From Bacilli bacterium (lineage in GTDB: Bacteria; Bacillota; Bacilli; Paenibacillales; KCTC-25726): a stretch of DNA of 45,025 nucleotides. Of this stretch, positions 3,912 through 6,020 are shown piece after piece (within the stretch, counting starts at the first letter, position 1; each line of letters begins with the position of its first letter). The stretch is taken from contig DASVDB010000052.1 of the NCBI GenBank assembly GCA_036381315.1, forward strand, positions 1-45,025. The letters run 5' to 3'. Under the pieces are notes generated by a model. The model made no database searches. It worked only from the letters and a program-made list of their open reading frames with translations, and had not been told where the DNA came from. Both the position numbers and the translations under genes were made by a program.

Positions 3912-4151
3912 TCACTGGGTGAAAAAGGAAATCACAAGCGAAAGGCCCAGGAACAATACAGACATTACAATTGTCAAGCGATGCAAAAGCAAGTCCAACC
4001 CGCGGGCTTTCGTCTTGCCGAACAAATGCTCGGCACCGCCGGAAATGGCGCCCGACAGCCCCGCGCTTTTTCCTTTCTGCAACAATACGATACCAATAAG
4101 TGCCAATGCCGATATAATCAGAATAATTTTCAAGACCAAATTCAAAACCAT
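3912..4151 (-). CDS. secG: protein translocase subunit SecG
   Basis: SecG is a small auxiliary subunit of the SecYEG channel in the cytoplasmic membrane that stimulates SecA-driven export. The 79-aa protein has two hydrophobic helices (about 4-22 and 53-76) separated by a loop with the family pattern [24 protein letters not shown], in which GGAEHLFGK is diagnostic. Length matches the usual 75-80 aa. Its ATG is preceded by AGGAGGTG. A promoter (TTGACG, 18-base spacer, TAAAAT) lies 65-100 bases upstream and a terminator follows, so it reads as a single-gene transcript. Its position between rnr and eno is the usual Bacillota arrangement. Confidence 0.96.
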
Positions 4152-4252: not shown

Positions 4253-4298
4253 CAAATCGTAATCATCAGCTATAATCCAGAATTGGATCCGCATCCAA

Positions 4299-4478
4299 TA
4301 TATATGGTTTTTCACATATATTTTTGTAAAAGCCGGCGTTTTTGCTTGATATATGTTATTTTTCACATATATTTGTGTAGAATTTGCAAACCCCTGCTAA
4401 ATATGTATGATTTTCCACATAAAATCGCCAAAAAATCGAGTTCTTAGAAAATTATGTTTGATTTTTCACATACATTTT
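4299..4478. repeat. four dyad repeats at 51-52 bp spacing
   Basis: Four copies of a degenerate dyad lie at about 4299-4322, 4350-4373, 4401-4424 and 4452-4476. Read on the minus strand the core is TATGTGAAAAAT followed, after a short gap, by ACATA or CATAT. The CACATA element (plus strand) starts at 4313, 4364, 4416 and 4467, so the steps are 51, 52 and 51 bases. Bases between the cores are only weakly similar. The array lies directly upstream of the secG promoter and within the eno-secG gap. It could be a helically phased protein-binding array or the remains of a roughly 51-bp tandem repeat. Confidence 0.75.
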
Positions 4479-4496
4479 CTTAAAAGTAAAATTGGC

Positions 4497-4650
4497 CGGA
4501 TGCCAGGGTACCGGGCTGCCCGGCGACTGGGCTGCTAAGCTGCCAGGATGTCAGAACGCCCGACGACTGAGCTGCCCGTCAGCCATGATGCTCTGCGACT
4601 GGGCCGCCTGGATGCCAAGCCACCTCGCCGACGGGCTGCCAGGCTGATAA
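4497..4650. repeat. degenerate GC-rich repeat tract
   Basis: This tract is built from recurring short words such as CGACTGGGC, GCTGCC and CCAGGATG. The word CGACTG recurs at 4524, 4564 and 4596. Periodicity is loose. Base composition changes abruptly from the AT-rich repeats at its left. It lies between the eno terminator and the phased dyads; no gene is visible. Confidence 0.5.
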
Positions 4651-4687
4651 AATGCGGCCTTCCCTTGCCGACAAAGGAAGACCGCAC
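4647..4687 (-). terminator. intrinsic terminator of the glycolytic operon
   Basis: On the minus strand, just past the eno stop codon, a 13-bp stem (TGCGGTCTTCCTT / AAGGGAAGGCCGCA, with a G-T pair and one mismatch) is followed by TTTTAT. Confidence 0.85.
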
Positions 4688-4703
4688 GCATTGGATCGCT
4701 TGC

Positions 4704-6020
<1,317 letters not shown>

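What the first reader, a model, noticed from the sequence alone, without database searches (positions are those of the whole stretch)
4299..4478. Four dyads phased at 51-52 bp upstream of secG
Four degenerate dyads (minus-strand core TATGTGAAAAAT...ACATA) recur with CACATA starting at 4313, 4364, 4416 and 4467. Steps of 51, 52 and 51 bases equal about five DNA turns, placing all sites on one face of the helix. The cores are more conserved than the bases between. This fits an array for a cooperatively binding protein, or a chromosome-organisation site, or a decayed tandem repeat.
Basis: seen in the sequence. Interest (0 to 1): 0.6.

Follow-up and report, generated by a model that had tools for sequence, protein, structure and literature searches.

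The report
Dispersed array of 51-52-bp dyad repeats
The four evenly spaced palindromes next to secG are real and are one of twelve scattered copies of a non-coding repeat, part of a seemingly undescribed repeat family found across Paenibacillus and its relatives, whose 51-52 bp spacing is kept even where the DNA between the palindromes is unrelated.

Summary
In detail: four AT-rich dyads at 4301, 4352, 4404 and 4455, steps 51/52/51 (4 matches, 0.01 expected). It is not a private secG feature. The same genome holds 12 four-dyad arrays between different genes, and corresponding spacers match between loci, so a four-unit block was copied around the chromosome. Other Paenibacillales (Paenibacillus, Cohnella, Paenibacillaceae) carry arrays of the same dyad at the same pitch with unrelated spacers, 2 to 19 units. 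With any step from 36 to 66 bp allowed, 225 of 230 pairs lay at 50-53. In Paenibacillus the elements have a leader and a trailer, vary in unit number at orthologous places, are present or absent between species, favour convergent gaps, and in one subtype are oriented along the replichores (27/28). The window's genome (6:6) and a second genus lack clear polarity. Best reading: a STAR/BOX-like modular interspersed repeat, spread as a non-autonomous mobile element, whose dyads and pitch are probably kept by an unknown DNA-binding protein. Binder and mobiliser are not identified. It does not fold as RNA, does not need a Y1 transposase, and has no match in Rfam, phage or plasmid records, or the papers searched.

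The parts
4281..4487 (+). extent of the repeat element that aligns to its other copies in the genome
   Evidence: blastn of 12 loci against each other, 75-80% identity over 175-204 bp
4301..4318 (+). dyad 1, TATATGGTTTTTCACATA
4352..4369 (+). dyad 2, TATGTTATTTTTCACATA
4404..4421 (+). dyad 3, TGTATGATTTTCCACATA
4455..4472 (+). dyad 4, TGTTTGATTTTTCACATA
4319..4351 (+). spacer 1; same-index spacers match between loci (mean 0.68), other-index ones less (0.47)
4370..4403 (+). spacer 2
4422..4454 (+). spacer 3
3912..4151 (-). secG, the gene downstream of the array; no evidence that the array acts on it
   Evidence: SecG PF03840, E 7e-20
4704..5996 (-). eno, the gene on the other side
   Evidence: Enolase PF00113, E 4e-138

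Best explanation
The feature is one copy of a modular, non-coding interspersed repeat. Its unit is an AT-rich dyad (about TATnnnRTTTTTCAYATA) plus a variable spacer, repeated every 51-52 bp. Shown: 12 copies of a four-unit block lie in this genome; related arrays of 2-19 units occur across Paenibacillales; unit number differs at orthologous places; whole elements are present or absent between related species. Inferred: the element spread as a non-autonomous mobile element (leader - units - trailer), with units gained and lost by tandem duplication. Also inferred: the dyads are docking sites for an unidentified DNA-binding protein that contacts neighbouring dyads about five helical turns apart, which would explain why dyad and pitch persist where spacers are unrelated. 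The window copy is an old, diverged copy in the eno-secG gap; any effect on secG would be incidental.
For: 12 arrays of exactly four dyads in the genome; block copying from spacer index; dyads more conserved than spacers; same dyad and pitch with unrelated spacers in other genera; 225 of 230 pairs at 50-53 bp when 36-66 was allowed and 265 of 279 steps at 51-52 in loci chosen without asking for spacing; leader and trailer in Paenibacillus; presence/absence at two places and unit-number changes at orthologous places; convergent-gap enrichment, odds ratio 7.8, the pattern that PMC3049150 takes as a mark of mobile repeats.
Against: No mobiliser, terminal inverted repeat or target duplication was found. 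No binding protein was found. Pitch constancy within one array could partly be inherited by tandem duplication. In the window's genome the copies are old (20-25% diverged), leader and trailer are poorly defined, and convergent gaps are not favoured. The presence/absence alignments have ragged edges, so deletion is not excluded.
Confidence: 0.6

Rival explanations
1. Purely selfish or decaying repeats without present function. Dyad and pitch conservation only reflects what the past copying machinery required.
For: Patchy distribution, 36 of 392 genomes of the order; avoidance of promoters, preference for convergent gaps; no gene class among neighbours; homogenisation of units within an array.
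Against: In the window's genome dyads stay more alike than spacers among old copies, and the C102 copy keeps all four dyads and the pitch while its spacers have diverged.
Confidence: 0.22
2. Chromosome-organisation sites read along the replichore, like KOPS or SRS.
For: In Paenibacillus 44 of 52 arrays, and 27 of 28 of the CAC/CAT subtype, have the TTTTTCAYATA strand running towards the origin, also in convergent gaps (12 of 13); gene strand bias of 74% does not account for it.
Against: No polarity in the window's genome against the majority gene strand (6 of 12) and none clear in G090 of another genus; the CGC subtype is only 16 of 23. Strand-specific insertion would give the same picture.
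Confidence: 0.09
3. Operator array of a regulon: a cooperative transcription factor controls secG and the genes next to the other copies.
For: Phased palindromes; in the window's genome most arrays lie in tandem or divergent gaps, 5' of a gene such as secG, ylxM, proB or trpE.
Against: Neighbours are unrelated housekeeping genes; copies share spacers and so arose by copying; in Paenibacillus divergent, promoter-bearing gaps are avoided, 2 of 66.
Confidence: 0.05
4. Structured RNA or single-stranded-DNA hairpin element moved by a Y1 transposase, as for REP or IS200/IS605.
For: Dyads, leader stem and trailer stem could form hairpins; replication-strand polarity in Paenibacillus resembles insertion into the lagging-strand template as described for IS608 and ISDra2 (PMC6006769, abstract).
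Against: PF01797 is absent from the window's genome and from array-bearing G122, G144, G076, G115, G132, G264 and G187. An alignment of 126 units folds to nothing on either strand; G-U is not preferred over A-C in the arms; no Rfam match.
Confidence: 0.04

Closest known systems
STAR elements of staphylococci (PMC3532100)
   Same: Intergenic arrays of a short conserved motif with 40-44-bp spacers, units of about 50 bp, a start signature, variable unit number, spacers alike within a locus, function unknown.
   Different: The STAR motif is a 14-bp GC-rich sequence; here it is an AT-rich dyad. Near-invariant pitch across genera and replichore polarity were not described in the passages read.
BOX elements of Streptococcus pneumoniae (PMC3049150)
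   Same: Modular plan: end module, variable number of tandem middle units, other end module; enriched between convergent genes; regarded as parasitic and non-autonomous.
   Different: BOX is predicted to fold as RNA, the units here are not. BOX, RUP and SPRITE follow coding-strand bias (61-63% leading strand); the Paenibacillus CAC/CAT subtype is 27/28.
REP/BIME with RAYT (PMC2817692)
   Same: Dispersed palindromes in regular arrays in intergenic regions; also targets of insertion sequences (PMC1525189).
   Different: BIMEs alternate orientation, here all units of an array point one way; no Y1 transposase in the window's genome.
KOPS / SRS polar sites
   Same: Orientation along replichores, in the Paenibacillus subtype only.
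   Different: KOPS and SRS are frequent single 8-mers (own knowledge), not sparse phased dyad arrays; polarity is absent in the window's genome.

Membership tests
STAR element | 14-bp motif T(G/A/T)TGTTG(G/T)GGCCC(C/A) | tested here: not met
   the motif here is TATnnnRTTTTTCAYATA
STAR element | intergenic direct repeats with spacers, variable unit number per locus | tested here: met
   met in relatives, 2-19 units; always four in the window's genome
STAR element | start signature GTGGGACAGAAATGAT | not tested
   leaders seen here are TCATCCTAACGGATGA-like; the signature itself was not searched
BOX element | end module - tandem middle modules - other end module | tested here: met
   leader and trailer recur in Paenibacillus elements; only weak in the window's genome
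BOX element | predicted RNA secondary structure | tested here: not met
   units do not fold on either strand; leader and trailer stems not tested statistically
BOX element | sequence similarity to boxA, boxB, boxC | not tested
   box sequences were not to hand
REP/RAYT system | Y1 (HUH) transposase in the genome | tested here: not met
   PF01797 absent from G000 and seven other array-bearing genomes
MITE | terminal inverted repeats and target-site duplication | tested here: inconclusive
   none seen by eye in flanks or at two presence/absence places, but edges are ragged
CRISPR array | unique spacers acquired one by one | tested here: not met
   spacers recur between loci and units
KOPS/SRS-like polar sites | orientation from origin to terminus on both replichores | tested here: inconclusive
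   met for the Paenibacillus CAC/CAT subtype (27/28); not met in the window's genome (6/12) nor clearly in G090

The most novel reading that the evidence does not exclude
Paenibacillales use phased dyad arrays as nucleoprotein scaffolds along the chromosome, read directionally by a translocase or the replisome in Paenibacillus; mobile-like spread is how new scaffold sites are seeded.
Probability: 0.12. Interest if true: 0.88.

Novelty: new variant of a known kind. Interest (0 to 1): 0.6.

Why it matters
It adds an order-wide family to the poorly understood STAR/BOX type of bacterial repeat, with two sharp, testable facts: an almost invariant 51-52-bp pitch across genera with unrelated spacers, and 27/28 replication orientation in one Paenibacillus subtype. 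Either should lead to an unknown DNA-binding protein or to a strand-specific way of spreading. Unit-number variation also makes the arrays candidate strain-typing markers.

Tried and rejected
Private secG regulatory array: rejected, 12 block copies exist. Chance: rejected. Tandem Repeats Finder does not detect the array, the spacers being too diverged. Rfam: nothing (a group II intron domain in L033 is unrelated). Plasmid and phage records by blastn: nothing; the four viral-contig pattern hits lack a good left arm. RNA structure of the unit: none. The 1.4-kb gene found between arrays at six loci first looked like the mobiliser, but it is a Mutator/IS256-type insertion sequence sitting inside the arrays, with an 8-bp duplication where read. 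Y1 transposase: does not co-occur. Replichore polarity as a general rule: rejected, it fails in the window's genome and is not clear in G090. A helical-turn series (41-42, 62-63 bp): absent. Literature by sequence and by name: no description found.

Full report
What was checked. With the consensus TATGTGATTTTTCACATA and up to three mismatches the 45-kb window has four matches, at 4301, 4352, 4404 and 4455, all on the + strand; shuffles give 0.01 on average. The array lies between eno and secG, both on the - strand.

It is a repeat family in this genome. A search of the whole assembly (2.78 Mb, 183 contigs) with the element finds ten further full-length copies at 75-80% identity and a twelfth array with diverged spacers on contig C102. 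The dyad pattern with up to three mismatches gives 50 matches in the genome, 46 of them inside the 12 arrays, against 1 for the reversed control. Every array has exactly four dyads at steps of 51 or 52 bp. The arrays lie next to unrelated genes, among them secG, ftsY/ylxM-ffh, ylmD and trpE (confirmed by Pfam), and others such as guaA, proB and rho that were recognised only by eye from their translation. Spacers with the same index are 0.68 identical between loci, those with different index 0.47; dyads are 0.82 in both cases. So a four-unit block was copied around the chromosome. Dyads (0.82) and their shoulders (0.87) are more conserved than spacer interiors (0.69; p 0.0014), although the contigs are 50-56% G+C and the dyads are very AT-rich.

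It is a family in the order. A pattern of two cores at 50-53 bp occurs in 36 of 392 genomes of the order, with zero in the reversed control. Hits outside Paenibacillales lack the left arm of the dyad and look like chance. Arrays run from 2 to 19 units. Spacers are unrelated between lineages, similar within an array, and in one 19-unit array alternate between two types. When all steps from 36 to 66 bp were allowed in 23 array-bearing genomes, 230 pairs were found, against 225 in the same genomes at 50-53 bp; there is no series at four or six helical turns. In Paenibacillus loci chosen by a single-site pattern, 265 of 279 neighbour steps are 51 or 52. The pitch is a fixed property of the element, compatible with about 10.3 bp per turn over five turns but stricter than helical phasing alone would need.

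Anatomy and behaviour in Paenibacillus-like genomes G203, G295 and G122 (one genus; 185-306 sites each; the genus name is inferred from arrays matching P. silagei). Many elements have a recurrent leader with a TCATCC-TAAC-GGATGA stem and a recurrent trailer ending near GGAAACTATAGTTTCC. At orthologous places between species unit numbers differ (6 v 13, 5 v 13, 4 v 4). Two places show an element of several hundred bases present in one species and missing in the other, with ragged edges. Arrays are enriched in convergent gaps (36 of 66 against 34 of 254; odds ratio 7.8, p 2e-11) and nearly absent from divergent ones, as PMC3049150 reports convergent enrichment for BOX, RUP and SPRITE.

Strand polarity. 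dnaA was located in each genome. Away from the terminus (taken as the point opposite dnaA) and counting one array per orthologous place, the strand TTTTTCAYATA runs towards the origin in 44 of 52 arrays (p 4e-7), in 27 of 28 of the CAC/CAT subtype (p 2e-7) and in 12 of 13 of those in convergent gaps; 74% of genes in the same loci are on the leading strand, which does not account for it (p 0.003 against 0.75). The CGC subtype is 16 of 23, with a G122 subfamily mostly reversed. The arrays were taken from lists of at most 100 sites per genome, best matches first, so this is a sample. The window's genome shows 6 of 12 against the majority gene strand of each contig, and genome G090 of another genus no clear bias by eye. 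Polarity is therefore a trait of one Paenibacillus subfamily. It may reflect insertion into the lagging-strand template or selection; the data do not decide.

What it is not. No RNA fold in 126 aligned units on either strand, no G-U preference, no Rfam family. No Y1 transposase in the window's genome or in seven other array-bearing genomes. Not CRISPR: spacers recur. Not on the phage or plasmid records searched. A Mutator/IS256-type insertion sequence sits inside arrays at six loci; in L189 it has its own ends and an 8-bp target duplication, so it is a guest.

Mechanism. Best supported: a modular interspersed repeat that spread as a non-autonomous mobile element and changes unit number by tandem duplication. 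That dyads and pitch survive with unrelated spacers points to a protein that binds neighbouring dyads; this step is inferred. The binder and the mobiliser are unknown. The closest described kinds are STAR elements (PMC3532100) and BOX elements (PMC3049150); it is not filed as a member of either, since the motif differs from STAR and an RNA structure as predicted for BOX was not found in the units. No description of this family turned up in the papers searched.

Noticed in passing
L189:3500-4960; also L193, L205, L220, L228, L231: A Mutator/IS256-type insertion sequence (PF00872) sits inside the dyad arrays at six loci in three genomes; in L189 the 8-bp duplication is CATGTGGC in a spacer. The arrays seem to be its preferred target, as REPs are for some IS.
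   Followed up: partly
G000:C134:3603-3620 and G000:C58:7153-7170: Two single, orphan dyads outside any array in the window's genome.
   Followed up: no
window 4490-4690: GC-rich degenerate repeat stretch (GGCTGCC, GGATGCCAG-like) between the array and eno; a similar stretch lies right of the C109 copy.
   Followed up: no
G122 arrays at 1256800, 4290457, 4479306, 4632542, 6836792 (L214, L223, L224, L226, L231): CGC-subtype arrays, several with a shared different leader (GATATTACCTGCGCGTCAGCAA), lie in the orientation opposite to the other Paenibacillus arrays.
   Followed up: partly
L168, minus strand, 19 units: Array in which two spacer types alternate for most of its length, so the amplified unit is a 104-bp dimer.
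   Followed up: no
upstream of arrays in L207, L208, L202, L176, L227: A second dispersed Paenibacillus repeat (about CGTCCTTTTAAAGGACGGTACCGTTTCAGCGAGAAATA) often sits beside the arrays.
   Followed up: no
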